This document shows positions 2,965 through 18,339 of a stretch of DNA of 53,555 nucleotides, one piece after another. The position numbers were made by a program, and so were the translations under genes. The stretch's first letter is position 1. Each line of letters opens with the position of its first letter. Source of the DNA: Geminicoccaceae bacterium (lineage in GTDB: Bacteria > Pseudomonadota > Alphaproteobacteria > Geminicoccales > Geminicoccaceae); contig JAGRGG010000118.1 in NCBI GenBank assembly GCA_020445645.1, positions 685-54,239 of the forward strand. Direction: 5' to 3'. The notes under the pieces are model-generated. The model saw nothing but the letters and a program-made list of their open reading frames with translations, had not been told where the DNA came from and searched no databases.

Positions 2965-4008
2965 TTACCGCTTCGCCCCGAACGCGCCGCGCACCTCGCT
3001 CGTCGCCCAGCCGCTCGGACCCCCAGCGAGGCCGAAGTCGCCCGCCATCTCGTCGGCGGCTGGGCCGAAGAACTTGCCGTTCACCCGCCCCGTCAGATGG
3101 CCGTTGGTCGAGGTGATCCCGCCGGCGAAGCCGTTGCCGGTGATCGTCACGGTCGAGAAGTTCAGCTTGCCCCAGGCCGTGCCGTCGGCCTTGGCGAGCG
3201 CCATCTGCGCGCCCACCGTACCCTTGGCGAAGTCGGCGCTGGCATTCAGGGATCCCGCGAGGTCGTTCAGGACGTGGCGGGTCGCGGCGTCGTACTCGAC
3301 CGCCATCGCGGCGCCCGTGTAGGTGGCCTTGCCCGAAAGCGGCATCGCCATGGTCTTCAGGCCCCCGTAGACCGTGCCGATGTCGGCGAGGTCGGCGCCG
3401 TTCACGGCGAGCGCCCAGGCGCCGTACAGGCTGTAGTCGAGCGCTCCGCCGCCGATGTCGGACAGGGTGAGCCGCATCAGGGGAACGCCGCCCGCCGCGT
3501 AAGTGCGCAGCCCGCGATCGGCGGCGACGGCGGGGGCGTCGGTGGCAAAAGCGAAGGGCTCGTCGCCGCGCGTCAGGGTGAACGTGCCGTCGGCGGCGAC
3601 GGCGAGCTTCATCTTCTTGCCCGCATCCGACTTGTAGGCTTCGAGCAGCACGTCGTCGCCAGTGCGGATCGCCCTTGCTAAGGGCGAGTCGCCCCGGACA
3701 AGGGGCTCGCTGGCCGACCCGCCGGTCGTGCCCCCAGTCGTGGTGGCGCCGCTGGAGGTCGTGCCGCCCGACGTGGCCGACCCGCCCGTGGTGCCGCCCG
3801 TCGTCGTGCCACCGGTGGTGGCGCCGCCCGACGTGGAGCCGGCACCACCGTTGCCGCCCGTGGTGCCACCACCGGTCGTGCCGGCGCCGTCGCCGCCCTG
3901 CCCGGCGCCGATCGGGCCATCGGACCCGCCGCCGGTGCAGGCCGCGAGCGAGAGGACGAGGGCAAGCGCGCTGAAGCCGAGGAAGGGAAGACGAGACATC
4001 GTCGTCAC
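2965..4008 (-). CDS. Surface lipoprotein with TbpB-like beta-barrel domain
   Basis: Protein of 347 aa. It has a lipoprotein signal peptide with lipobox SLAAC (cysteine near residue 24), then about 75 residues of Gly/Thr/Ser low complexity built on GGTTGG-like units (plus-strand 3700-3960), and then a folded domain. The C-terminal NGKFFGPAADEMAGDFGL matches the F-F/Y-G-P-x-A-x-E-x-x-G hallmark of the C-lobe barrel of transferrin-binding protein B and related Slam-dependent surface lipoproteins. The Gly/Thr linker probably holds the barrel away from the outer membrane. The ligand is unknown and no Slam or TonB receptor gene is nearby. A second, damaged relative lies at 36269-38164. The short N-terminal MTTM may not be the true start; M5 is also possible. 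Confidence 0.75.
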   Translation of the reverse strand: MTTMSRLPFLGFSALALVLSLAACTGGGSDGPIGAGQGGDGAGTTGGGTTGGNGGAGSTSGGATTGGTTTGGTTGGSATSGGTTSSGATTTGGTTGGSASEPLVRGDSPLARAIRTGDDVLLEAYKSDAGKKMKLAVAADGTFTLTRGDEPFAFATDAPAVAADRGLRTYAAGGVPLMRLTLSDIGGGALDYSLYGAWALAVNGADLADIGTVYGGLKTMAMPLSGKATYTGAAMAVEYDAATRHVLNDLAGSLNASADFAKGTVGAQMALAKADGTAWGKLNFSTVTITGNGFAGGITSTNGHLTGRVNGKFFGPAADEMAGDFGLAGGPSGWATSEVRGAFGAKR

Positions 4009-6036: not shown

Positions 6037-7614
6037 TCAGTGCCACCGGTCGGGCGTCTCCGCCTTCCTGCGCGCCATGAAATCCAGCAGCGCCTCGTCG
6101 ATTCCCGGATCGAGCGGCGGCGCCTGGTAATCGGCGAGCATCCCCTTCCAGCACGCGTTGGCCCGTTGTTCGAGATCCCGGCCTCCGGCCTCGGTCCACT
6201 GCTCGAAGGACGCCGTGTCGGCGAGCCTTGAGGGGTGGTTCGCGGTCTCGAAATGCCGCATCGTGTGGGCGCAGCCGAGGTAGTTGCCGCCCGGCCCGGC
6301 CTCCAGGTAGGCGTCCGGTGCCAACGCCTCGTCGTCGATGGTCAGCCCCTCCACCATCCGCAGCATCATCCCGCAATGGTCGAGGTCCATGACGAACTTC
6401 TCGTAGCCCATCGTCAGCCCGCCCTCGAGCCAGCCCGCCGCGTGGAAGACGAAGTTCGACCCGGCCAGCACGCCCGCCATCATGCCGGCAACCGATTCCT
6501 GCATCGCCTGCCCGTCCGCGACCTTGGACGCGGTCAGGTGCCCGCCGCAGCGCAGCGGCAGGCCCAGCCGCCGGCACAACTGCGCGATGGCGAAGGTGGC
6601 GAGGTTCGCCTCCGGGGTGCCGAAGGTCGGTGCGCCGGTCTTCAGGTCCATCGTCGTGAGGAAGCTGCCGTAGACGACCGGCGACCCCCTCCGCACGAGC
6701 TGGCCGAGCGCGATCCCGGCCATCGCCTCGGCGTGCGACTGCGCCAGCAGCGCCGGCTGCGTGACCGGCCCCATCGCTCCCCCGAGGATGAACGGCGAGA
6801 CCACGACGCTCTGGTTGGCCCCGGCGTAGGCCCTGAGCGCGCCCGACATGGTGCCGTCGTAGACGAGCGGCGAGTTGACGTTGATGTTGCCCTGGACGAC
6901 GCAGTGCTCCTCCAGGTAGCCCTCTCCGAAGACCAGCTTGGCCATGGCGATCGAGTCCTCGGCCCGCTCGGGCGCCGTCACCGACCCCATGAACGGCTTG
7001 GTCGAGTAGCGCAGGTGCGCGTAGACCATGTCGAGGTGGCGCTTGTTGACCGGCAGGTCGACCGGCTCGCACACCGTGCCGCCCGAGTGGTTGAGCCAGG
7101 GCGAGGCGTAGGCGAGCTTCACGAAGTTGCGGAAGTCCTCGATCGTCGCGTAGCGCCGCCCCCGGTCGAGGTCGGTGACGAAGGGCGGGCCGTAGGCGGG
7201 CATCAGCACCACGTGCCGGCCGCCCAGCACGATCGAGGATGCCGGGTCGCGCCCCTCCATCCGAAAGCCGGACGGGGCGGTTGCGCAGAGCGCCCGCGCG
7301 TGGCCGGGGTCGAAGCGCACCCGCGAGCCCGTGACCGTCGCCCCGGCCCCGTGGAACAGGCGCAGCGCCTCAGGATCGTCCCGGAACTCGATGCCGATTT
7401 CGCGCAGGATCCAGTCGGCGTGCGCTTCGAGTCCGTGCAGCGCCTCCTCGTGCAGCAGTTCGAACGTCGGCGTCCGGCGCAGGATGATCGCCGGGGCCGG
7501 GGCCGCGCGGCCCCGGCGCGCGAGGCGGGCCGCGCGCCCGCCGCGTTTCGCGGGATGGTCCGCCGGCGCCGGCTCGATGCTGCCGGAGGCTCGTGCCAAT
7601 CGCTTTTCCTCCAT
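6037..7614 (-). CDS. Trimethylamine methyltransferase (MttB) superfamily protein
   Basis: Protein of 525 aa, close to the family norm. It aligns by eye with non-pyrrolysine MttB homologues: LMPAYGPPFVTD, an LNHSGGTVCEP region, and a long C-terminal barrel with LRCGGHLTASK and GSNFVFHAAGWLEGGL. There is no in-frame amber codon, so it belongs to the MtgB/MtpB-like branch, which demethylates quaternary amines such as glycine betaine onto a corrinoid protein. No corrinoid protein, RamA or transporter gene is beside it, so substrate and acceptor are unknown. The N-terminus (about 45 residues, Arg/Ala rich) is poorly conserved and the start could lie further in. The serine-cycle genes at 14-18 kb make a C1 link plausible, but this is inference. 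Confidence 0.85.
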   Translation of the reverse strand: MEEKRLARASGSIEPAPADHPAKRGGRAARLARRGRAAPAPAIILRRTPTFELLHEEALHGLEAHADWILREIGIEFRDDPEALRLFHGAGATVTGSRVRFDPGHARALCATAPSGFRMEGRDPASSIVLGGRHVVLMPAYGPPFVTDLDRGRRYATIEDFRNFVKLAYASPWLNHSGGTVCEPVDLPVNKRHLDMVYAHLRYSTKPFMGSVTAPERAEDSIAMAKLVFGEGYLEEHCVVQGNINVNSPLVYDGTMSGALRAYAGANQSVVVSPFILGGAMGPVTQPALLAQSHAEAMAGIALGQLVRRGSPVVYGSFLTTMDLKTGAPTFGTPEANLATFAIAQLCRRLGLPLRCGGHLTASKVADGQAMQESVAGMMAGVLAGSNFVFHAAGWLEGGLTMGYEKFVMDLDHCGMMLRMVEGLTIDDEALAPDAYLEAGPGGNYLGCAHTMRHFETANHPSRLADTASFEQWTEAGGRDLEQRANACWKGMLADYQAPPLDPGIDEALLDFMARRKAETPDRWH

Positions 7615-7831: not shown

Positions 7832-8902
7832 ATGAACCCTGTACCTGCCTCGCGGCCCGTTGCTGCGGTCGTCGCAATCCCCGTGCGCAACGAGGCGGCA
7901 CGGCTCGGGCGCTGCCTGGACGCGCTCGGGGCGCAGGCCGGCGGGTTCGAGGTCGTGCTCCTCCTCAACAACTGCGAGGACGACAGCAGGGCGGTGGCGG
8001 AGGCGGCGAAGCCCCGGTTGCCCTACCGCCTCCACCTCGTCGAGGCGCGGCTCGAAGGCGGGCGGGCGCACGTCGGCTGGGCGCGGCGCCTCGCGATGGA
8101 CGCGGCGGCGGACCTCGTGGGGCCAAGCGGGATCATCCTCACGACCGACGCCGACAGCCGGCCTGTGCCGGGCTGGCTTGCCGCCAACCGGGCGGCGGTC
8201 GCGGGCGGGGCCGACGCGGTCGCCGGGATTATCGTCCCGGACCCGGCCGAGCGGCGGGGGCTGCATCCGATCGCCCGGCAACGGCTCTCGGGCCAACGCC
8301 GCTACGAGCGGCTCATGGAGCGCCTCGCGAGCCTCCTCGACCCGGAAGAGCACGACCCCTGGCCGCGCCACGGCTACCACTGCGGCGCCAGCATGGCGGT
8401 GCGGCTGGGCGTCTACCGCAGGGTGGGGGGCCTGCCGCCGGAGCCGTCGAGCGAGGACCGGGCCTTCTTCGCCGCCGTCCTGCGCCAGGACGGGCGGGTG
8501 AGGCATTGCCCGAAGGCCCGGGTCGTCACCTCCTGCCGGCTGGACGGCCGCGCCGCCGGCGGCATGGCCGATACGCTCTTGCGCTGGAGCGAGGCGCGGG
8601 AGGGGGAAGCCATCCCGGCGGCGCGGTCCGTGGCCCGCGCCGCACGGCTGCGCGCCGCGCTGCGCCGGGCGTGGCGGGCAGGCTCGCCGGCGGCCTTTCC
8701 CGCCCTTCCCCCTGCGGCGCTCGCGGACGTGCTCCAGGCTCCCACCTTCGGCCTCGCCCTGGAACGCGCCGCCCGCCGCCTTGCTGCCCTCACCCCCCGC
8801 CTCGTCCCCGCCGCACGCCTCGCGGAGGAGATCGCGGCGGGGCTTCGGCTGGCGGCGGGGCTGGAGAGCGGAGCGCCTTCGGCCCGTCGGGATCGGCGCT
8901 GA
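7832..8902 (+). CDS. Family 2 glycosyltransferase
   Basis: Protein of 356 aa with a GT-A fold. The N-terminus VVAIPVRNEAARLGRCLDAL is the nucleotide-sugar binding start. LTTDADSRPVPGW gives the metal-binding D-x-D (Asp106, Asp108). A later acidic motif, SSEDRAFF, supplies the likely base. There are no obvious membrane spans, so it should act on a cytoplasmic or membrane-surface acceptor. A gene set of glycosyltransferase, NodS-like methyltransferase, PIG-L deacetylase and acyl-CoA dehydrogenase-like protein, as found here at 7.8-12.7 kb, looks like a conserved neighbourhood. It suggests this enzyme adds a sugar to a common product. Sugar donor and acceptor cannot be read from the sequence. 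Confidence 0.85.
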   Translation: MNPVPASRPVAAVVAIPVRNEAARLGRCLDALGAQAGGFEVVLLLNNCEDDSRAVAEAAKPRLPYRLHLVEARLEGGRAHVGWARRLAMDAAADLVGPSGIILTTDADSRPVPGWLAANRAAVAGGADAVAGIIVPDPAERRGLHPIARQRLSGQRRYERLMERLASLLDPEEHDPWPRHGYHCGASMAVRLGVYRRVGGLPPEPSSEDRAFFAAVLRQDGRVRHCPKARVVTSCRLDGRAAGGMADTLLRWSEAREGEAIPAARSVARAARLRAALRRAWRAGSPAAFPALPPAALADVLQAPTFGLALERAARRLAALTPRLVPAARLAEEIAAGLRLAAGLESGAPSARRDRR

Positions 8903-9251
8903 GGCTTAGAGGGCGTTGCGGGAAGCCGATCGTCGAGGCCCGACGGCGCCCACCAGGCTAAGGGTCCGGGTGCCCGTCCGCCAAGACGGCCTTTCCGGCG
9001 CCCGGACCGCGGCGACTGCCTTGATCCGTTCCTCGTCGGGCCTCATTTCACCCTTCGACCCCGGAAGGCGCATCGGGCGGGGCACGCCTTTCGTCCGACC
9101 GCGCGGGATCCCATTCAACGCCGCGCTTCGGCTCCGCGGCGTCCTCGGCCAACGGCGACCCAATTCTACGGTTTCGTGCTGGCGAAGGGCGGGCCGGCCA
9201 CGGATCCGCGAGCGTCGCCGGTCCGGGCGAAACGAAGGATAGGAGACCACG
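8903..9251. other. Intergenic region, no gene recognised
   Basis: 349 bp between two plus-strand genes. The only structure seen is a long-loop inverted repeat GATCGGC (8891-8897) / GCCGATC (8925-8931) spanning the glycosyltransferase stop. Open frames here are Arg/Pro/Ser rich and look like chance. GAAGGATAGGAG just before 9252 is the ribosome binding site of the next gene, whose promoter is presumably in this stretch. Confidence 0.5.
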
Positions 9252-10100
9252 ATGAGCACGACCGATGCCTTGGAACGTCGCCCGGCCGACGGCGCGGACG
9301 CCGAAGCCGGCCCCTCCGCGACCCCGCGGGAGAAGGGTAAGGAGGAGCGCCGCGCCGTCCTTTACCGGATGGTGATGCCGGACCACCTGTGCCCCTTCGG
9401 GCTGAAGGCCAAGTCGCTGCTCGAACGCCAAGGCTACGCGGTCGAGGACCATCACCTCACCACGCGCGGGGAGACCGACGCCTTCAAGAAGGAGCACGGC
9501 GTCGAGGCCACGCCGCAGGCCTTCATCGACGGCGAGCGCGTCGGCGGCTACGACGACCTCAAGCGCCTCTTTGGCAAGACCGTGCGCGAGGACCAGGAAA
9601 CGACCTACGCGCCGATCGTCGCCATCTTCTCCACGAGCGCGCTGACGGCGCTGGCGATCGTCTGGAACGTCCACGGGGGCCTGCCGCCGCTGACGTGGCT
9701 CAAGTGGTTCATCGCCGTCTCCATGACCGTCCTCGCCATCCAGAAGCTGCAGGACGTGGAAGGCTTCGTGAACGGCTTTTTGGGCTATGACCTGCTCGCG
9801 CGGCGCTGGGTGCCCTACGGCTACGCCTACCCCTACCTCGAGGCCTATGCCGGCATCGGCATGCTGGCCCTGATCGGTTCGGGCTCGCCCTTCGTGTGGC
9901 TGGTCGCGCCCGTGGGCCTCTGCATCGGCACGATCGGCGCGGTCAGCGTCGTCAAGGCGGTCTACGTCGATCGGCGCGAACTCAAGTGCGCCTGCGTCGG
10001 TGGCGGCTCCAACGTGCCGCTCGGCGTCATCTCCCTGACCGAGAACGTCATGATGGTCGTACTGGGCCTTTGGATGCTCGGCGCGCAGACCCTCGGGTAG
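9252..10100 (+). CDS. Glutaredoxin domain fused to a MauE-like membrane domain
   Basis: Protein of 282 aa. A charged leader (1-33) is followed by a glutaredoxin-like fold (about 34-110) whose active site is C47-P-F-G, so it has a single thiol rather than CPYC, with TPQAF as the cis-Pro motif. Then come four or five predicted membrane helices (about 120-280), ending in KCACVGGGSNVPLGVISLTEN, which is characteristic of MauE/methylamine-utilisation-type redox membrane proteins. The Cys-x-Cys near the fifth segment may exchange electrons with the glutaredoxin domain. MauE homologues help form disulfides or tryptophan-derived cofactors in the periplasm. No mau genes are near. The 3' end overlaps the convergent methyltransferase gene by 53 bp. 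Confidence 0.82.
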   Translation: MSTTDALERRPADGADAEAGPSATPREKGKEERRAVLYRMVMPDHLCPFGLKAKSLLERQGYAVEDHHLTTRGETDAFKKEHGVEATPQAFIDGERVGGYDDLKRLFGKTVREDQETTYAPIVAIFSTSALTALAIVWNVHGGLPPLTWLKWFIAVSMTVLAIQKLQDVEGFVNGFLGYDLLARRWVPYGYAYPYLEAYAGIGMLALIGSGSPFVWLVAPVGLCIGTIGAVSVVKAVYVDRRELKCACVGGGSNVPLGVISLTENVMMVVLGLWMLGAQTLG

Positions 10101-10689
10101 GCGGCGCGCCCGTCCGCCGCCACAGGTCCAACCGGTAGCTGTCGGTCCGCGCCTCGGCGACGGCGCGGACGGCGCCGCCCAGGGCCTGCCGCAGCCGCCG
10201 GGTCGCCTCGTCGCCGCTGAGGGGGTAGTCGGTTTCCCTGATCCAGTGGACGAGGAGGAGGTCGCCGCCCGGACGGAGCGCGGCTTCGATGGCGGCGGCG
10301 GCGGCTTCGATGTCGGCGGGAGACCAGTAGTAGACGACCTCGGAGAGGAGGATCAGGTCGAAGGGGCCGGGGGGCGCCTCGGCGGGGAAGCGGGCGCGCC
10401 GGAAGGTCACGCCGAGCAGGGCGGCGCAGCGGGCGCGGGCGGCGGCCAGCGCCTTCTCGGCCACGTCGAGGGCGAGAAGGCGGCCGCAGCGGGGAGCGAG
10501 GCGCTCGGTCAGCACGCCAATGGCGCAGCCGACTTCCAGGGCATGGTCGTAGCGGGGACCGAGGGCGCCCAGCGTCGCCGCGTACTTCGCTGCCTCGTAG
10601 GGACTGGTGGCGAAACGCCAAGGGTCGGGGTCGGCGTCGTAGAGCGATTCGAAGTAGGCAGGGGGCAACGAGTGTGGCGGGCGGGTCAA
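10048..10689 (-). CDS. NodS-like SAM-dependent methyltransferase
   Basis: Protein of 213 aa, class I fold. The N-terminal FESLYDADPDPWRFATSPYEAAKY and SAM motif I ALEVGCAIGVLTERL (residues 50-64) strongly resemble NodS, the N-methyltransferase that methylates the free amine of deacetylated chitooligosaccharides in Nod factor synthesis. Motifs FDLILLSEVVYYW and LRPGGDLLLVHW follow. I chose TTG at 10689 because it overlaps the TGA of the PIG-L gene by 3 bp (TTGA), a coupling used repeatedly in this genome. The order deacetylase then methyltransferase suggests that an N-acetylated sugar is deacetylated and then N-methylated. That is inference; the actual substrate is not known. Confidence 0.8.
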   Translation of the reverse strand: MTRPPHSLPPAYFESLYDADPDPWRFATSPYEAAKYAATLGALGPRYDHALEVGCAIGVLTERLAPRCGRLLALDVAEKALAAARARCAALLGVTFRRARFPAEAPPGPFDLILLSEVVYYWSPADIEAAAAAIEAALRPGGDLLLVHWIRETDYPLSGDEATRRLRQALGGAVRAVAEARTDSYRLDLWRRTGAPPTRGSARRASKGPVRPS

Positions 10690-11420
10690 GGATCGGCCTC
10701 CAGGAAGACCTCGGGACCAAGGAGCGCGGCCTCGATCATCGCGGGCGGCAGGCGAAAGCCGGCGGGGTCGTCGTCGACGAGGTCCGCGACCTGCGAGCGG
10801 TGACGGGCGATGGCCTCGGCCTTCGCCGCGCGGAACGGCCCGACGGCGAAAGTGAAGCCTCGGGGCGGCCCGCCGACGGGGGTGCCGGGGGACAGGGCGC
10901 GGCCCCAGACGGGGTATTCGAGCAGGCGGGGCCGGGGCCGCAGCCCCGCCCGCAAGGCCGCCGCGAGGTCGAAGGCGGCCCCGTGGTCGCGGTGGGGGTC
11001 GTGCCGCCACGTCGTCAGCAGGGTCGCGGGAGAAACCTTGGCGAGGACCGAACGCAGCCGCCCCAGCGCGTCCGCGAACCCCCCCTCCCCCCGGCGCGGC
11101 ACGGCGGCGTCGGGCAGGCGCAGGAAGCGGGGCGGACGCGGACAGCCGAGTGCCAGAAGCGCCGCGCGCAGCTCCCCCTCGCGCAGGTCGCGCAGAACCT
11201 CCCCCGCGTAACGCCGCGACCCGAGATGCGAAGCGGCTCCGTCGCTCACCGCCACGACCAGCGGCGGATGCCCCGCCGCCGCGAGCGCCGCGACGAGTGC
11301 GCCGCAGCCGAGGCTCTCGTCATCGGGATGCGGTGCCAGCAGCAGGACCTCGCCGAGCGCGGCGGGGTCGCCCAGCGGGGGCAACCGTGCGGCTGCGGCG
11401 AGGAAGGCGGGGGCGTCCAC
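10686..11420 (-). CDS. PIG-L/LmbE family deacetylase
   Basis: About 244 aa. The zinc motif LLLAPHPDDESLGCG (His31, Asp33, Asp34) and the second motif WRHDPHRDH (His143, Asp145, His146) are intact, as expected for an N-deacetylase of GlcNAc-containing substrates. The start is uncertain. GTG at 11420 gives a normal N-terminus. An ATG at 11477 would read through the palindromic element and add a basic tail of repeat-encoded residues. It is translationally coupled to the methyltransferase downstream. Upstream, the acyl-CoA dehydrogenase-like gene is on the same strand, but a terminator-like palindrome now sits between them and may weaken or break the operon. Confidence 0.85.
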   Translation of the reverse strand: MDAPAFLAAAARLPPLGDPAALGEVLLLAPHPDDESLGCGALVAALAAAGHPPLVVAVSDGAASHLGSRRYAGEVLRDLREGELRAALLALGCPRPPRFLRLPDAAVPRRGEGGFADALGRLRSVLAKVSPATLLTTWRHDPHRDHGAAFDLAAALRAGLRPRPRLLEYPVWGRALSPGTPVGGPPRGFTFAVGPFRAAKAEAIARHRSQVADLVDDDPAGFRLPPAMIEAALLGPEVFLEADP

Positions 11421-11431
11421 GTCAGGGGGAG

Positions 11432-11571
11432 ACGCGCTTCGCGTCCGCTGCGCGGGGCTTCCCTTTTTCTTTTTCATCTGTTTGCCGGGCTTGGTCCGGG
11501 CGCCCGGACCAAGCCCGGCAAACAGATGAAAAAGAGGAAAAAAGACCCCGCACCAGCGGACGCGAAGCGTC
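11432..11571. repeat. Dispersed element with a perfect 68-bp central palindrome
   Basis: The outer ends carry the family core (CGCTTCGCGTCCGC on the left, GCGGACGCGAAGCGT on the right). The centre, 11468-11501 against 11502-11535, is a perfect 34+34 bp palindrome with no spacer; its middle is GGTCCGGGCGCCCGGACC. T- and A-runs flank it. It could extrude as a cruciform or act as a very strong RNA hairpin on either strand. It lies inside what looks like an operon (acyl-CoA dehydrogenase to PIG-L). Confidence 0.88.
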
Positions 11572-11579
11572 GTCTTCTT

Positions 11580-12749
11580 TCAGCACCACAGATCCCCGAG
11601 CGGTTCGTCCGCGTTCAGGACGAAGGCGGCGGCGGTGGCGAGGGCGCGGTCGGGAGCGGGTTGGCGGAGGTAGAGCTGGAGGTCGCGGGTGAGGCGGTCG
11701 AGGGGGGAGGAGGCCATGAAGGCCTGGACGCCGACGGCGCGGTGGGCGAGTTCGAGGGTGTCGAGGGCGGCGCGCTCGACGGCGAGGCGGGCGAGGTGGA
11801 CCCGGGCGATCAGACGGTCGGGGGCGACGGCGTCGATGGCGGCGAGGCGGGCGGCTTCGTTCAGCCAGAGGCGGGCGGTTTCCGTCGCCGTCGCCATCCG
11901 GCCGAGGCGGGCGAGTTGATGGGGGTCTTCGCCCCGGCCCGTCCGGCGGAGGTGGTTCCGCACCGCCTCGGCCAGGGCCTCGACGCCGCCGAGGTGCACG
12001 GCGGCGAAGCGCCACGCGCCGGCGGAGAAGTCGGGCTCGCGCGCGTAGTCGCCGGGGTCGCCGATCAGGTCGTCGGTCGCGACGCGAAGGCCGGTGAAGT
12101 CGAGCCGGCCGCTGCGCGACGCGCGCATCCCGGAGACCCGCCAGCCCGACAGGTCGACCCGGTCGTCGTGGGGGGCGTCGAAGCGGACGACGAGCATCCG
12201 CACCGAGCCGTCGGGCAGCCGCGCCGTGACGAGGGGGCGGTACACGTCGCCGGCGCCGGAGGCGAAGGTCTTGGCGCCTTCGAGTCGGTAGCAATCCCCC
12301 TCGGGGAGGAGGCGGAGCGGGTCCGACCCTTCGGTGTTCCAGACGGCGAACAACATCCCCGCCCTCGCGTCGGCGGCGAGGCGCCGGGCCCGCGCTGGGC
12401 CGCCGTGGCGTAGGATCAGCCGCCAAGCGTTGACGTGGCCCTCGTAGAGGCGGCCCAAGGGCAGGCTGCCCCGGCCGATCCGCCGCAGCACGTCCAGGAG
12501 GAGGAGCGAACCGAGCGCCTCGCCCCCGGCCCCGTACCCCCCGAGCGTGGGCGGGAGCGGCAAAGCGAGGAGGCCCGCATCGGCCAGCGCCCGGACCTCC
12601 TCGGCCGGGAAGGCGCCGTCGGCGTCGCGGGCGGGTGCCAGGGACGCGGCGAGGTCGGCGACGCGCGCGGCCCCGGCGAGGACGCTGTTGCCGTCGCACT
12701 TCGGCGGGTCGGCGAGGTTCGACGCGGGGTCGTTGAGGAAAGCCTGCAT
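11580..12749 (-). CDS. Acyl-CoA dehydrogenase-like flavoprotein
   Basis: Protein of 389 aa with the three-domain acyl-CoA dehydrogenase layout: an N-terminal helical domain (FPAEEVRALADAGLLALPLPPTLGGYG), a beta domain around YRLEGAKTFASGAGDVYRP, and a C-terminal helical domain (about 240-389). The beta-domain sequence is closer to the flavin monooxygenase/uncharacterised branch than to classic fatty acid dehydrogenases, and the catalytic glutamate cannot be assigned by eye. It is the first gene of a minus-strand set with PIG-L and a NodS-like methyltransferase. The enzyme may therefore oxidise or desaturate an acyl or sugar-linked intermediate rather than serve beta-oxidation. That is inference from context. 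Confidence 0.75.
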   Translation of the reverse strand: MQAFLNDPASNLADPPKCDGNSVLAGAARVADLAASLAPARDADGAFPAEEVRALADAGLLALPLPPTLGGYGAGGEALGSLLLLDVLRRIGRGSLPLGRLYEGHVNAWRLILRHGGPARARRLAADARAGMLFAVWNTEGSDPLRLLPEGDCYRLEGAKTFASGAGDVYRPLVTARLPDGSVRMLVVRFDAPHDDRVDLSGWRVSGMRASRSGRLDFTGLRVATDDLIGDPGDYAREPDFSAGAWRFAAVHLGGVEALAEAVRNHLRRTGRGEDPHQLARLGRMATATETARLWLNEAARLAAIDAVAPDRLIARVHLARLAVERAALDTLELAHRAVGVQAFMASSPLDRLTRDLQLYLRQPAPDRALATAAAFVLNADEPLGDLWC

Positions 12750-12793
12750 GGGCGAATAACGGGAACGAAGGCCGAACGTTGCCTCGTAAGATC

Positions 12794-12920
12794 ACGCTTC
12801 GCGTCCGCCGGGGCGGGGCCTTTTTTATCTGTTGGTCGAATGTGGCACGAACGCCCGTACCGAGCACGGCCAACAGATGAAAAGGGAAGAGAAGGCCCCG
12901 CGCCGGCGGACGCGAGGCGT
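12794..12920. repeat. Complete dispersed palindromic element
   Basis: 127 bp between the acyl-CoA dehydrogenase-like gene start and the LysR gene stop. The left end CACGCTTCGCGTCCGCC is followed by GGGGCC and a T-run, and the right end mirrors it. Inside are ATCTGTTGG and CCAACAGAT. The central block is related to that of the copy at 1838-1955, but the middle 8-mer is inverted (GAACGCCC here, GGGCGTTC there). Confidence 0.85.
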
Positions 12921-12931
12921 CGTCTTCGCTC

Positions 12932-14014: not shown

Positions 14015-15205
14015 ATGCCGGGTCGCAAAGGTCTTTTCATCCCTGGTCCCACGAACGTGCCGGACGAGATCCTCCGCGCCATCGACGTGCCGATGGAGGA
14101 CATGCGCGCACCCGACTTCCCCGAGTTCACGCTCCCCCTCTTCGAGGACGTGAAGAAGGTCTTCAAGTCCGAGACGGGCCAAGTCTTCATCTTCCCGGCG
14201 TCGGGCACCGGCGGCTGGGAGGCCGGGATCACGAACACCCTGTCCCCCGGCGACAAGGTGCTGGCGGCGAGCTTCGGCCAGTTCTCGCATTTGTGGATCG
14301 ACCTCTGCCAGCGTCACGGGCTCGAGGTCGAGGTCTGCGACGTGCCGTGGGGCGAGGGCGTGCCCTTGGACCGCTACGCCGAGATCCTGAAGGCCGACAG
14401 GGCGCACGAGATCAAGGCCGTGCTCGTCACCCAGAACGAAACCGCGACCGGCGTCACCTCGGACGTGGCGGGCGTCAGGAAGGCGCTCGACGACGCGGGA
14501 CACCCGGCCCTCCTCATGGTCGACGGCGTCAGCTCGATCGCCAGCATCGACTTTCGCATGGACGAGTGGGGCGTCGACATCGCCGTGTCGGGCTCGCAGA
14601 AGGGCTTCATGATGCCCACGGGCCTCGCCATCGTCTGCGTGAGCCAAAAGGCGCTCGAAGCGCGCAAGTCCGCGAAGCTGTACCGCACGTACTTCAGCTT
14701 CGACGACATGATGAACATGAACAAGAACGGCTACTTCCCCTACACCCCGGCGACGAACATGCTCCGGGGCCTCAGGAAGTCGGTCGACATGATCTTCGCC
14801 GAAGGGCTCGACAACATCTTCGCCCGCCACCACCACATCGCGGAAGGGGTGCGGCGCGGCGTCCACGCCTGGGGCCTCAAGCTCTGCGCCGTCGAGCCGA
14901 AGTGGTACTCGGACACGGTGAGCGCCATCGTGGTGCCCGCCAACGTCGACGGGGCCGAGGTCGTGAAGCGGGCCTACCACCGCTACGACCTCTCGCTCGG
15001 CGCCGGGCTCGCCAGGGTCGCGGGCAAGGTGTTCCGGATCGGGCATCTGGGCTCGCTCAACGAGATCATGGCGCTCTCGGCGCTGGCAGGCGCCGAGATG
15101 GCGCTGGTCGACTGCGGCGCCGACATCAAACTCGGGTCGGGCGTGGGCGCGGCCCAGGCCTACTACCGCGAGCGCGACCGGGCGGAGCGCCGCGCCGCCG
15201 CCTGA
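14015..15205 (+). CDS. sgaA: Serine--glyoxylate aminotransferase
   Basis: Protein of 396 aa, class V PLP enzyme. The N-terminus [17 protein letters not shown] and the PLP-lysine motif VSGSQKGFM (Lys196) match methylotroph serine-glyoxylate aminotransferase. [13 protein letters not shown] supplies the aspartate that contacts the cofactor nitrogen. It converts L-serine plus glyoxylate into hydroxypyruvate plus glycine, the entry of the serine cycle for formaldehyde or formate assimilation. It is the first gene of sgaA-mtkA-mtkB-hprA. The strong ribosome binding site 9 bases upstream fixes the start. Cytoplasmic. The enzyme also handles photorespiratory-type glyoxylate, so methylotrophy is suggested but not proven. 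Confidence 0.93.
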
Positions 15206-15234
15206 CGGCCTTCGACGATCGGACCACGACGACT

Positions 15235-15259
15235 CCGGCCGCGCGGAAGGCGCGGCCGG
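15235..15259 (+). other. Intra-operon hairpin between sgaA and mtkA
   Basis: A perfect 10-bp stem CCGGCCGCGC (15235-15244) / GCGCGGCCGG (15250-15259) with loop GGAAG. No T-run follows, and the mtkA ribosome binding site AAGGGGAAGG starts just after it. This suggests transcript processing, stability control or attenuation of translation rather than termination. Confidence 0.5.
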
Positions 15260-15278
15260 CAAGGGGAAGGCTCGGCCG

Positions 15279-16454
15279 ATGGACATCCACGAGTACCAGG
15301 CGAAGGAGCTGCTCGCCCGCCACGGGGTGGTGATCCCGCGCGGCGAACTCGCCTACAGCCCGGAGCAGGCGGTGCTCAGGGCCAGGGAGACCGGCGGCTC
15401 GGCCTGGGTCGTCAAGGGGCAGGTCCATAGCGGTGCCCGCGGCAAGGCGGGCGGGATCAAGTTCTGCAAGGACCCGCACGAGGTCTGGAACGCGGCCGAC
15501 ACGCTCCTGGGCAAGCGGCTCGTCACCCATCAGACGGGACCGAAGGGCAAGCCGATCTTCCGCCTCTACGTCGAGGCGGCGGCGAGGATCGAAAGGGAAC
15601 TCTATCTGGGCTTCGTCCTCGACCGCCAGAGCGAGCGGATCATGGTCATCGCCTCGGCGGAGGGCGGGACGGAGATCGAGGACGTGGCGGCCGAATCCAT
15701 CCACCGCGTCATCGTCGAGCCCGCCGTCGGCCTCCAGGCGTTCCAGGCGAGGGCGCTCGCCTTCAAGCTGGGCTGCGGCGGCGACGAGATGGCGCAGATG
15801 GTCCAGACCATGCTCGGCGCCTACAGGACCTTCCGCGACCTCGACGCCACGATGATCGAGATCAACCCGCTCGTCGTCACCGAGGAGAAGGCGGTGGTGG
15901 CACTCGACTGCAAGATGTCGTTCGACGACAACGCGCTCTACCGCCACCCCGACATCGCCGAATTGCGCGACCGCTCGCAGGAGGACCCGCGCGAGGGGGC
16001 GGCGCTCGACCGGGGGCTATCCTACGTTGGCCTCGACGGCACGATCGGCTGCATGATCAACGGCGCCGGGCTTGCGATGGCGACGATGGACATGATCATG
16101 CTGGCGGGCGGCAGGCCCGCGAACTTCCTCGACATCGGCGGCGGCGCCACGCCCGACCGGGTCGCCAAGGCCTTCCGCCTCGTCCAGGCCGACGACAACG
16201 TGAAGGTGATCCTCGTCAACATCTTCGCCGGGATCAACCGCTGCGACTGGGTGGCGAAGGGGATCGTCGAGGCGGTGGGGGCAACGAAGCTCAGGCTGCC
16301 GCTCGTCGTCCGCCTCGCCGGCACCAATGTCGAGGAAGGGCGCCGGGTGCTGGCCGAGAGCGGCCTTGCGATCGTGAGCGCCACGACCCTCGCGGAAGCG
16401 GCCGAGAAAGCCGTTGCCGCCGCCAAGGCGACCGAGACGGCGGGGACTCCTTGA
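15279..16454 (+). CDS. mtkA: Malate--CoA ligase (malate thiokinase) beta subunit
   Basis: Protein of 391 aa, homologous to succinyl-CoA synthetase beta (SucC). It begins [17 protein letters not shown], the usual SucC-type N-terminus, followed by an ATP-grasp domain with [21 protein letters not shown]. The C-terminal flavodoxin-like domain contains [17 protein letters not shown]. Pairing with an alpha subunit gene directly downstream, and location between sgaA and hprA, identify malate thiokinase rather than the TCA-cycle enzyme. The reaction is malate + CoA + ATP to malyl-CoA, which malyl-CoA lyase then splits to glyoxylate and acetyl-CoA. The lyase gene (mcl) is not in the window. Confidence 0.92.
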
Positions 16455-16455
16455 G

Positions 16456-17343
16456 ATGAGCATCCTCCTCGACAAGAACACCCCCGTCATCGTCCAGGGG
16501 TTCACCGGCAAGATCGGCACCTTCCACGCCCAGGACATGATCGCGTACGGCACCAACGTCGTCGGCGGGGTGACGCCGGGGCGGGGCGGCACGAAGCACC
16601 TGGACCGGCCCGTCTTCGACAGCGTCGAGGACGCGGTCGCGGCGACCGGGGCCACGGCCTCGATCGTCTTCGTCCCGCCGCCCTACGCCGCCGACGCCGT
16701 CATGGAGGCGGCCGACGCCGGGATCGGCCTTTGCGTCGCCATCACCGACGGCATCCCCTCCTTGGACATGATGAACGTCAAGCGCTACATGTGGCGCTTC
16801 CCGAAGGAGCGGCGGATGCGGCTCATCGGCCCCAACTGTGCCGGGATCATCACGCCGGGGCAGGCCATCCTCGGCCTCATGCCGACCCATATCTACAAGC
16901 GGGGCTCCGTCGGCATCGTCGGCCGCTCCGGCACGCTCGGCTACGAGGCCGCCGACCAGATGAAGGCCCTTGGCATCGGCGTCAGCACGAGCGTCGGCAT
17001 CGGCGGCGACCCGATCAACGGCAGCTCGTTCCGGGACATCCTGGAACTGTTCAAGGACGACCCCGAGACCGAGGCCGTCGTCATGATCGGCGAGATCGGC
17101 GGGCCGCAGGAGGCCGAGGCGGCCGACTACATCAAGGCGGGCTTTGGCAAGCCCGTCATCGGCTACGTCGCCGGGCTCTCGGCGCCGAAGGGCAAACGGA
17201 TGGGCCACGCCGGCGCCATCGTGTCGAGCGTCGGCGAGAGCGCCCCCGAAAAGGTGGAACTGCTCAAGGCGGCCGGGGTACACGTGGCCCCGAACCCGTC
17301 CGAGATCGGCGCCACCGTGCAACGCGCCCTCGGGCTGCACTAG
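16456..17343 (+). CDS. mtkB: Malate--CoA ligase (malate thiokinase) alpha subunit
   Basis: Protein of 295 aa, SucD-like. [14 protein letters not shown] near the N-terminus binds Co[11 protein letters not shown] (156-165) follows, and the phosphohistidine motif is MGHAGAI with His251. ATG at 16456 lies one base after the mtkA stop (16452-16454), so translation is coupled. Together with MtkA it makes the heterotetrameric ligase. Length and motifs are complete. Confidence 0.92.
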
Positions 17344-17367
17344 ACGCCACAAGGGGGGCATCGAACC

Positions 17368-18339
17368 ATGACCAAGCCGCGCGTGCTCGTCACCAGACGC
17401 TGGCCGGAAGCCGTCGAGGCGGCGCTGAAGGAACGCTACGACCTCGTCCTCAACGAGGACGACCGGCCGATGGACGAAGACGGGCTGCGCGCGGCGCTCC
17501 GCGACATGGATGCCGTCCTGCCCACCGTCTCGGACAGGCTCGACGCCGCCGTGTTCGAGGTCGAGAACCCGAAAGCGCGTTTCCTGGGCAATTACGGCGT
17601 CGGCTACAGCCACATCGACACCGAGGCCGCAAAGCGGCACGGCATCGTCGTCACCAACACGCCGGACGTCCTGAGCGACTGCACGGCGGACTTGGCGATG
17701 GCGCTCCTCCTCGCGTCGGCGCGACGGATCGGCGAGGGCGAGCGGCAGGTGCGCGGCAAGGCGTGGTCCGGCTGGCACCCGATGCACATGCAGGGCGGCA
17801 AGGTCGCCGGCAAGACGCTGGGCATCATCGGCTTCGGGCGGATCGGCCGCGAGGTGGCCAAGCGGGCGCACCACGGCTTCGACATGAAGGTGGTCTACTT
17901 CGACAAGTACCCCGCCAAGCCCGAGGTCGAGCGGGATCTGGGCGCCGAACGCCGCGACACGGTCGACGACGTGCTGGCCGAGGCCGATTTCGTCTCGCTC
18001 CACTGTCCCGGCGGCCAGGAGAACTACCACCTGATCGACGCCGAGCGCCTGAAGCGGATGAAGCCGACGGCCTACCTCGTCAACACAGCGCGCGGCGAGG
18101 TCGTCGACGGGGCGGCGCTCGCCGAGGCCCTGAACGCCGGCACGATCGCCGGTGCCGGGCTCGACGTCTACGAGGGCGAGCCCAAGGTCAACGAGGCCCT
18201 GCTCGCCTGCGAGAACGCCGTCCTCCTGCCGCACCTCGGCAGCGCCACCAAGGACACCCGGATCGCCATGGGGATGCGCGTTCTCCAGAACCTCGATGCC
18301 TTCTTCGCGGGCAAGGAGCCGCCCGACCGCGTCGCCTGA
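17368..18339 (+). CDS. hprA: Hydroxypyruvate reductase / D-2-hydroxyacid dehydrogenase
   Basis: Protein of 323 aa. The NAD-binding loop is TLGIIGFGRIGREVAKRA (150-167), followed by the catalytic triad Arg242 (NTARGEVVD), Glu271 (YEGEP) and His289 (LLPHLGSAT). It sits in one operon with sgaA, whose product hydroxypyruvate is the expected substrate. It yields D-glycerate, which glycerate kinase feeds to 2-phosphoglycerate. The family also includes glyoxylate and phosphoglycerate dehydrogenases, but context supports hydroxypyruvate reductase. AGGGGGG-like ribosome binding site about 10 bases upstream. Two strong hairpins follow the stop. Confidence 0.92.
   Translation: MTKPRVLVTRRWPEAVEAALKERYDLVLNEDDRPMDEDGLRAALRDMDAVLPTVSDRLDAAVFEVENPKARFLGNYGVGYSHIDTEAAKRHGIVVTNTPDVLSDCTADLAMALLLASARRIGEGERQVRGKAWSGWHPMHMQGGKVAGKTLGIIGFGRIGREVAKRAHHGFDMKVVYFDKYPAKPEVERDLGAERRDTVDDVLAEADFVSLHCPGGQENYHLIDAERLKRMKPTAYLVNTARGEVVDGAALAEALNAGTIAGAGLDVYEGEPKVNEALLACENAVLLPHLGSATKDTRIAMGMRVLQNLDAFFAGKEPPDRVA

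What the first reader, a model, noticed from the sequence alone, without database searches (positions are those of the whole stretch)
7832..12749. Possible uncharacterised amino-sugar pathway: GT2, NodS-like, PIG-L and acyl-CoA dehydrogenase-like genes
PIG-L enzymes deacetylate GlcNAc-type sugars, and NodS-type enzymes N-methylate the freed amine. The start codon of the methyltransferase overlaps the stop of the PIG-L gene, so the two are made together. With a GT2 and an oxidative flavoprotein nearby, the set could build an N-methylated glycoconjugate related in chemistry to Nod factors, although no nodA/C is present. The glutaredoxin-MauE protein is interposed and may be unrelated.
Basis: inference. 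Interest (0 to 1): 0.6.

Follow-up and report, generated by a model that had tools for sequence, protein, structure and literature searches.

The report
Conserved four-gene amino-sugar cassette, stress-linked
Four neighbouring genes (a sugar transferase, a deacetylase, a NodS-like methyltransferase and a flavin enzyme) form a conserved but uncharacterised gene set that recurs in at least five bacterial phyla, often beside stress-defence genes, and probably builds a modified amino-sugar compound that nobody has yet identified.

Summary
GT2, PIG-L, NodS-like MT and an acyl-CoA-dehydrogenase-fold gene lie as described; the MT start (TTG, 10689) overlaps the PIG-L stop by 4 nt. Anchored on the ACAD-like gene, all 8 carriers among 31 genomes of the order have MT adjacent (one cut by a contig end), and 7 have PIG-L. 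All 14 carriers among 397 Pseudomonadota have MT and/or PIG-L adjacent. The quartet also occurs in Cyanobacteria, Bacteroidota, Deinococcota and Verrucomicrobiota, with natural PIG-L::MT fusions and correlated divergence (rho 0.64-0.85). In two genomes lacking PIG-L/GT2 beside ACAD-MT, a second locus holds PIG-L and GT2.

The 'acyl-CoA dehydrogenase' is nearest to DszC/MsuC monooxygenases and lacks the catalytic glutamate in 63 of 63 sequences. The Nod-factor link is only the NodS-like MT. The recurrent context is stress: catalase, DUF892, Dps, GlgX/OtsAB, Ku/LigD and EcfG-like promoters (13/90 vs 10/759).

Best model, inferred: a soluble N-methylated, flavin-oxidised amino-sugar conjugate of the general stress response. 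The product is unknown. No open-access paper describing the quartet was found. Grx-MauE is incidental.

The parts
7832..8902 (+). GT2: soluble inverting-type GT-A glycosyltransferase (DxD D106/D108, E208-D209 invariant)
   Evidence: Pfam PF00535; AF2 model pLDDT 94.6, nearest folds WrtF, AvpGT, chondroitin polymerase, TarS; invariant motifs; no TM segment; homolog beside the cassette in 74 of 91 loci
10048..10689 (-). NodS-like SAM methyltransferase, TTG start overlapping the PIG-L stop
   Evidence: profile matches PDB 4isc (150 bits) and NodS 3ofj (96 bits)
10686..11420 (-). PIG-L/LmbE-type Zn deacetylase (GTG start; ATG alternative at 11477 lies inside a palindromic repeat)
   Evidence: PF02585 76 bits; PHPDDE and DPHxDH motifs conserved, zinc/catalytic residues invariant in 61 sequences; nearest solved TT1542, diacetylchitobiose deacetylase, BshB
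11580..12749 (-). ACAD-fold flavoprotein, monooxygenase-like, first gene of the ACAD-PIG-L-MT operon
   Evidence: AF2 model pLDDT 94.9; Foldseek best DszC/TdsC/MsuC; catalytic Glu absent
9252..10100 (+). Glutaredoxin-MauE membrane protein between GT2 and MT; probably not part of the cassette
   Evidence: found near only 1 of 91 related cassettes

Best explanation
GT2, PIG-L, NodS-like MT and the ACAD-fold flavoprotein are one co-inherited biosynthetic cassette (shown by comparative genomics). Inferred mechanism: GT2 attaches a GlcNAc-type sugar to a small cytosolic acceptor. The PIG-L zinc enzyme removes the N-acetyl group. The NodS-like enzyme, translationally coupled or fused to PIG-L, methylates the freed amine. 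The ACAD-fold flavoprotein then oxygenates or otherwise oxidises the product; it is not a standard acyl-CoA dehydrogenase. The resulting soluble amino-sugar conjugate is made as part of the general stress response and protects against oxidative, osmotic or desiccation stress. Rough confidence by step: cassette is real 0.97; stress role 0.7; oxygenase-like rather than dehydrogenase 0.65; deacetylation then N-methylation of one amino sugar 0.5.
For: Co-conservation from the ACAD anchor: order, 31 genomes, ACAD in 8, MT in 8, PIG-L in 7, always adjacent; Pseudomonadota, 397 genomes, 14 of 14 carriers with MT and/or PIG-L adjacent. 74 of 91 loci hold all four, in several gene orders. PIG-L::MT fusions in 8 loci. 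Mirror-tree rho 0.64-0.85, permutation maximum 0.26. Split-locus genomes G193 and G303 keep PIG-L and a cassette-type GT2 elsewhere. Zinc motif invariant. MT nearest to NodS among curated families. ACAD nearest to DszC/MsuC, then nitrososynthases; Glu absent at both known catalytic positions in 63 of 63. Stress context: any of KatE/DUF892/Dps/GlgX at 20/91 loci vs 1/40 random stretches, p=0.003; EcfG-like motif upstream of ACAD or GT2 13/90 vs 10/759 control genes, p=4e-8; OtsA-OtsB in the operon of L142; catalase downstream of GT2 on the same strand in Sulfitobacter; Ku, LigD and RpoH beside it in Bradyrhizobium. All four proteins lack membrane segments.
Against: No substrate, product or phenotype is known. 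PIG-L enzymes also act on non-GlcNAc substrates (for example 4-oxalmesaconate hydratase), and class I MTs often O-methylate. G013 carries ACAD-MT and a distant GT2 but no PIG-L at E<=1e-20. Some loci add GT4, GT28-like and GT7C-type transferases, which could mean a longer glycan. Fold alignment alone ties the ACAD model with true dehydrogenases. The stress marker families were chosen after seeing them recur, and single markers are not significant alone. No EcfG-like motif lies in the window itself.
Confidence: 0.5

Rival explanations
1. The cassette decorates a cell-surface polysaccharide or oligosaccharide: the PIG-L and MT modify GlcNAc residues during assembly by several glycosyltransferases, and stress protection comes from the altered envelope.
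For: Extended seven-gene form with GT4, GT28-like and GT2/GT7C transferases in Pedobacter and two alphaproteobacteria, and a Methylobacterium form with GT4-GT2-GT28 plus PIG-L-GT7C; GT4 and GT7C partners weakly match EPS families EpsE and EpsD; GT61 in one locus.
Against: No flippase, polymerase or lipid-carrier transferase was recognised among the neighbours examined; the four core proteins lack membrane segments; the window's order has no GT28x or GT7Cx homolog in any of 31 genomes, so the quartet works alone there.
Confidence: 0.25
2. It makes a redox cofactor by bacillithiol/mycothiol-like logic: GlcNAc put on a small acceptor, deacetylated by a BshB/MshB-like PIG-L, then the amine elaborated.
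For: PIG-L's closest curated families are BshB2 and BshB1; accessory GT4 weakly matches BshA/MshA; catalase, glutaredoxin and GST occur as neighbours at some loci.
Against: Scores lie far below the BshB/MshB cut-offs (42 vs 195; 21 vs 224); no cysteine-adding enzyme (BshC/MshC) was seen in any locus examined; the coupled enzyme is a methyltransferase, which would block the amine.
Confidence: 0.08
3. The flavoprotein is a real acyl-CoA dehydrogenase that supplies an unsaturated acyl group, so the product is an acylated glycolipid related to Nod factors.
For: ACAD fold; Pfam names it an acyl-CoA dehydrogenase; NodS-like MT.
Against: Catalytic Glu missing at both known positions in 63 of 63; no NodA-like acyltransferase recognised in any locus examined; GT2 is soluble and unlike NodC; best matches are monooxygenases.
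Confidence: 0.06
4. The flavoprotein is specifically an N-oxygenase of the nitrososynthase type, so the freed and methylated amine becomes a hydroxylamine, nitrone or N-oxide sugar.
For: Nitrososynthases (3mxl, KijD3, DnmZ) are the next structural group after DszC/MsuC; amine made available by PIG-L in the same operon.
Against: DszC and MsuC, which are S-oxygenases, score higher (93 and 91 vs 66 bits for DnmZ); no test of substrate.
Confidence: 0.2

Closest known systems
Rhizobial Nod-factor modification (NodB deacetylase, NodS N-methyltransferase)
   Same: A deacetylase paired with a NodS-like methyltransferase, probably deacetylation then methylation of one amino sugar.
   Different: The deacetylase is PIG-L (zinc LmbE fold), not NodB; the MT scores 76 vs the NodS cut-off 300; the GT2 is soluble and not NodC; a flavin enzyme is added; distribution is cyanobacteria, Bacteroidota and Deinococcus as well as alphaproteobacteria, and the context is stress.
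Bacillithiol/mycothiol pathways (BshA/BshB, MshA/MshB)
   Same: GlcNAc-transferase plus PIG-L deacetylase making a small intracellular glucosamine conjugate.
   Different: No cysteine ligase seen; GT2 rather than GT4 in the core; scores far below the equivalog cut-offs.
DszC / MsuC / SfnB ACAD-fold flavin monooxygenases and KijD3/DnmZ nitrososynthases
   Same: Fold, closest sequences, absence of the dehydrogenase glutamate.
   Different: 22-25% identity; own invariant motifs (EGHVN, RDLxxYLRQPxPD); fixed genetic partnership with GT2, PIG-L and MT.
PDB 4isc, uncharacterised methyltransferase (Pseudomonas syringae, by recall)
   Same: Closest solved relative of the MT (150 bits).
   Different: Named only 'Methyltransferase' in the record; its gene neighbourhood was not examined here.
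Alphaproteobacterial EcfG/PhyR general stress regulon (for example Sphingomonas melonis Fr1, PMC6599016)
   Same: Includes catalase, Dps-like proteins, Ku, GlgX/trehalose genes and an EcfG-dependent glycosyltransferase operon (#3505-3509).
   Different: Whether #3505-3509 are the GTs of the extended cassette was not checked; the paper's main text does not mention this quartet.

Membership tests
Nod-factor biosynthesis (nodABCS) | NodC-type chitin-oligosaccharide synthase | tested here: not met
   The cassette GT2 matches no NodC model and has no TM segment. Window-genome-wide search for NodC not done.
Nod-factor biosynthesis (nodABCS) | NodB-type polysaccharide deacetylase | tested here: not met
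   The deacetylase is PIG-L, PF02585 76 bits, sole Pfam family.
NodS equivalog | Score over the NCBIfam NF041650 cut-off | tested here: not met
   76.3 bits vs 300.
NodS-related methyltransferases (PF05401) | Pfam gathering score, SAM motif | tested here: met
   60.9 vs 24; ExGCxxG motif conserved.
PIG-L/LmbE deacetylases | Gathering score and PHPDDE...HxDH zinc/catalytic residues | tested here: met
   76 vs 28.2 bits; residues invariant in 61 of 61.
BshB / MshB | Equivalog cut-off | tested here: not met
   BshB2 42.4 vs 195.25; MshB 21 vs 224.35.
Acyl-CoA dehydrogenase | Catalytic glutamate (MCAD-type or IVD-type position) | tested here: not met
   No Glu at either aligned position in 63 sequences; alignment-based, not superposed.
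Acyl-CoA dehydrogenase superfamily | ACAD fold | tested here: met
   AF2 pLDDT 94.9; Foldseek and VIA matches, Z about 40.
ACAD-fold flavin monooxygenases (DszC/MsuC/SfnB) | Oxygenation with reduced flavin | not testable with these tools
   Nearest in sequence and Foldseek ranking, but SfnB 58 vs 430.9 and DszC 44 vs 850 bits.
GT2 glycosyltransferases | Gathering score, GT-A fold, DxD and catalytic ED | tested here: met
   PF00535 40.2 vs 23.3; model and invariant residues.
EcfG general stress regulon | EcfG promoter upstream in the window's own genome | tested here: not met
   No GGAAC-N15-18-SGTT in the window; enriched in related alphaproteobacterial loci.

The most novel reading that the evidence does not exclude
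A previously undescribed, widely distributed class of soluble stress metabolite: an amino-sugar conjugate that is de-N-acetylated, N-methylated (possibly to a betaine-like quaternary amine) and flavin-oxygenated, used by at least five phyla as a protectant under oxidative or osmotic stress.
Probability: 0.35. Interest if true: 0.85.

Novelty: new variant of a known kind. Interest (0 to 1): 0.6.

Why it matters
A four-gene set with no assigned product recurs with the same partners in desiccation- and radiation-tolerant and plant-surface bacteria (Deinococcus, Nostoc, Methylobacterium, Hymenobacter, Spirosoma, Komagataeibacter), often inside stress islands. It is small enough to express whole, so identifying its product is directly testable, and it could reveal a common stress-protective metabolite. 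It also corrects two routine annotations that mislead: 'acyl-CoA dehydrogenase' and 'nodulation protein NodS'.

Tried and rejected
Literature: nine searches aimed at the quartet or its context with different names (PIG-L, LmbE, NodS, ACAD, stress terms) found no paper describing it; one search asked only about nitrososynthases. Only open-access papers are held. Defence or phage origin: PADLOC gives only a weak MADS2-methyltransferase match for the MT, and PHROGs give weak generic matches; rejected. Apparent fusion in Hymenobacter L081 rejected: its N-terminal 564 aa match no family and look like a shadow reading frame. Apparent GT2-ACAD fusion in Methylobacterium L016 not trusted: the GC-rich frame stays open, but the residues after the GT2 domain look like a shifted frame. 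MttB beside GT2 as part of the pathway rejected: absent from 91 related loci. LysR as a dedicated regulator rejected: only 2 weak LysR matches in 91 loci. D. radiodurans heat-stress paper checked, no mention found. Deinococcus ACAD N-terminal domain: no Pfam or PDB sequence match.
Full report
Observation. On the minus strand, reading 12749 to 10048, come the ACAD-like gene, PIG-L and the NodS-like methyltransferase (MT). GT2 lies convergently at 7832-8902 +, with Grx-MauE (9252-10100 +) in between. The MT starts at a TTG that overlaps the PIG-L stop by four bases. Its C-terminal tail runs into the antisense 3' end of Grx-MauE.

Is the set conserved? A plasmid search with PIG-L alone returned loci that mostly held the same partners: Komagataeibacter, Bradyrhizobium and Nostoc with all four; Roseomonas without GT2; Methylobacterium with GT2 upstream; Deinococcus with ACAD, PIG-L and MT. 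A scan of GTDB genomes gave 80 loci in Alphaproteobacteria, Cyanobacteria, Bacteroidota and Verrucomicrobiota. Because that scan was anchored on PIG-L, I repeated the test anchored on the ACAD-like gene. In the window's order (31 genomes) 8 have it. All 8 have the MT adjacent (one cut by a contig end), 7 have PIG-L adjacent, and none of the other 23 has a cassette-grade MT; one (G011) has a weaker PIG-L at 125 bits. In a sample of 397 Pseudomonadota, 14 have it and all 14 have MT and/or PIG-L adjacent. A draw of 276 genomes from another class of the phylum gave 7 carriers; five of the six newly fetched loci show PIG-L beside ACAD, and L158 shows ACAD only. Of 91 non-redundant ACAD loci, 74 hold all four genes. 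The commonest order is ACAD> PIGL> MT> <GT2 (51), then GT2> ACAD> PIGL> MT> (18).

Stronger signs of shared function. PIG-L and MT are one protein in eight loci (Pedobacter, Gloeobacterales, L144). Pairwise distances of the four families correlate (rho 0.64-0.85 against a permutation maximum of 0.26). Two genomes with only ACAD-MT at one locus (G193, G303) carry PIG-L elsewhere, with GT7C and a cassette-type GT2 beside it in G303 and with GT4, GT2, GT28 and GT7C beside it in G193. Thus the set persists even where the operon is split. G013 is the exception: ACAD-MT plus a distant GT2, with no PIG-L found.

What each protein is. PIG-L: all zinc and catalytic residues invariant in 61 sequences; nearest solved structures are a TT1542 hydrolase, diacetylchitobiose deacetylases and BshB. 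MT: nearest curated family NodS (76 bits, next 30), nearest structures 4isc (150 bits) and NodS itself (96 bits); it fails the NodS equivalog cut-off. ACAD-like: confident model (pLDDT 94.9). Sequence profile and Foldseek rank DszC, TdsC and MsuC first, with nitrososynthases and true dehydrogenases after them; VIA Z-scores tie all of them. The glutamate that acts as base in acyl-CoA dehydrogenases is absent at both known positions in 63 of 63 family members, where RDLxxYLRQP replaces the usual motif. I therefore read it as an oxygenase-like flavoprotein; that is inference. GT2: soluble GT-A enzyme with invariant DxD and ED, nearest folds WrtF, AvpGT, chondroitin polymerase and TarS. Its donor and acceptor cannot be told from this.

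Larger form. Pedobacter species, two alphaproteobacteria (L146, L147) and the more diverged L144 and L157 add three more transferases: GT4, a GT28-like protein and a GT2/GT7C protein. Several Methylobacterium genomes have these with PIG-L in a second arrangement. None of the 31 genomes of the window's order has the GT28-like or GT7C-type protein, so the quartet is self-sufficient here. In L142 the operon begins OtsB-OtsA, the trehalose-phosphate enzymes. In five cyanobacterial loci the MT is fused to a HAD phosphatase-like domain. In Deinococcus the ACAD carries an extra N-terminal domain that looks, by eye, like a clan-A glycosidase; no library confirmed it, and homologs lie at Dyadobacter and Spirosoma loci. 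Phosphatases and trehalose enzymes as partners fit a soluble glycoside better than a polymer, but do not prove it.

Stress context. Neighbours recur that belong to stress islands: large catalase (10 loci), a stress-type SDR (12), DUF892 (6), GlgX (4), Dps (3), Ku/LigD/RpoH (Bradyrhizobium), spore photoproduct lyase (L149), and catalase on the same strand after GT2 (Sulfitobacter). Against 40 random 20-kb stretches, nearly all from carrier genomes, any of KatE/DUF892/Dps/GlgX occurs at 20/91 loci vs 1/40 (p=0.003); single markers are not significant, and the markers were picked after seeing them. An independent test is the EcfG promoter motif: 13 of 90 upstream regions of ACAD or GT2 in alphaproteobacterial loci vs 10 of 759 random genes (p=4e-8). 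Control genes include operon-internal ones, which lowers their rate somewhat, but a first control of 727 neighbouring genes gave 19 (p=9e-6). The window itself lacks the motif. In Sphingomonas melonis the EcfG regulon includes catalases, Ku, trehalose genes and an operon of glycosyltransferases #3505-3509 (PMC6599016). Whether those are the extended cassette was not checked.

Conclusion. Shown: a conserved, co-inherited four-gene module across at least five phyla, frequently in stress islands. Inferred: it makes a soluble de-N-acetylated, N-methylated, flavin-oxidised amino-sugar conjugate. The logic resembles NodB-NodS, but it is not a Nod-factor pathway by the tested features. No description of the quartet was found in the open-access literature searched. 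Product identification is the open question.

Noticed in passing
window 11431-11577 and 12788-12927: Two near-perfect palindromes (first folds to -127 kcal/mol, z -15.6) flank the ACAD gene; their arm motif GCGGACGCGAAGCGTC has 12 near-matches in the window. In relatives ACAD and PIG-L usually abut, so these look like REP/MITE-type insertions that may separate ACAD from PIG-L-MT expression.
   Followed up: partly
window 6037-7614: MttB-family (trimethylamine/betaine methyltransferase-like) gene next to GT2; 262 bits vs TMA cut-off 525, so probably another methylated-amine substrate. Not linked to the cassette in 91 related loci.
   Followed up: partly
window 14015-18339: By reading of the sequences, serine-cycle-type genes: aminotransferase, a malate/succinyl-CoA ligase-like pair and a hydroxypyruvate/glyoxylate reductase-like gene, suggesting a methylotroph. 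Not checked against family libraries.
   Followed up: no
L172 1078-9782, L174: Second Methylobacterium-type locus: GT4-GT2-GT28-like, then GT61, an endonuclease/phosphatase-family protein, PIG-L, GT7C and a cassette-type GT2; the GT7C protein is unusually conserved.
   Followed up: partly
L013 5630-6826, L126, L056 8751-9788, L040 18034-19152: A domain that looks like a clan-A glycosidase but matches no Pfam or PDB sequence is fused to the ACAD in Deinococcus and encoded separately near the cassette in Dyadobacter and Spirosoma.
   Followed up: partly
L013 8686-11298; L126 7496-8848: In Deinococcus a DEAD-box helicase gene (D. radiodurans) or a TnpB gene (D. wulumuqiensis) has been inserted inside the cassette, yet the cassette genes stay open.
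   Followed up: no
L069, L082, L057, L079, L070: Cyanobacterial fusion of a HAD phosphatase-like domain to the NodS-like MT, hinting at a phosphorylated intermediate.
   Followed up: no
L123 (G020) about 13.6 kb: A Grx-MauE homolog also lies about 2 kb from the cassette in another genome of the same order.
   Followed up: no
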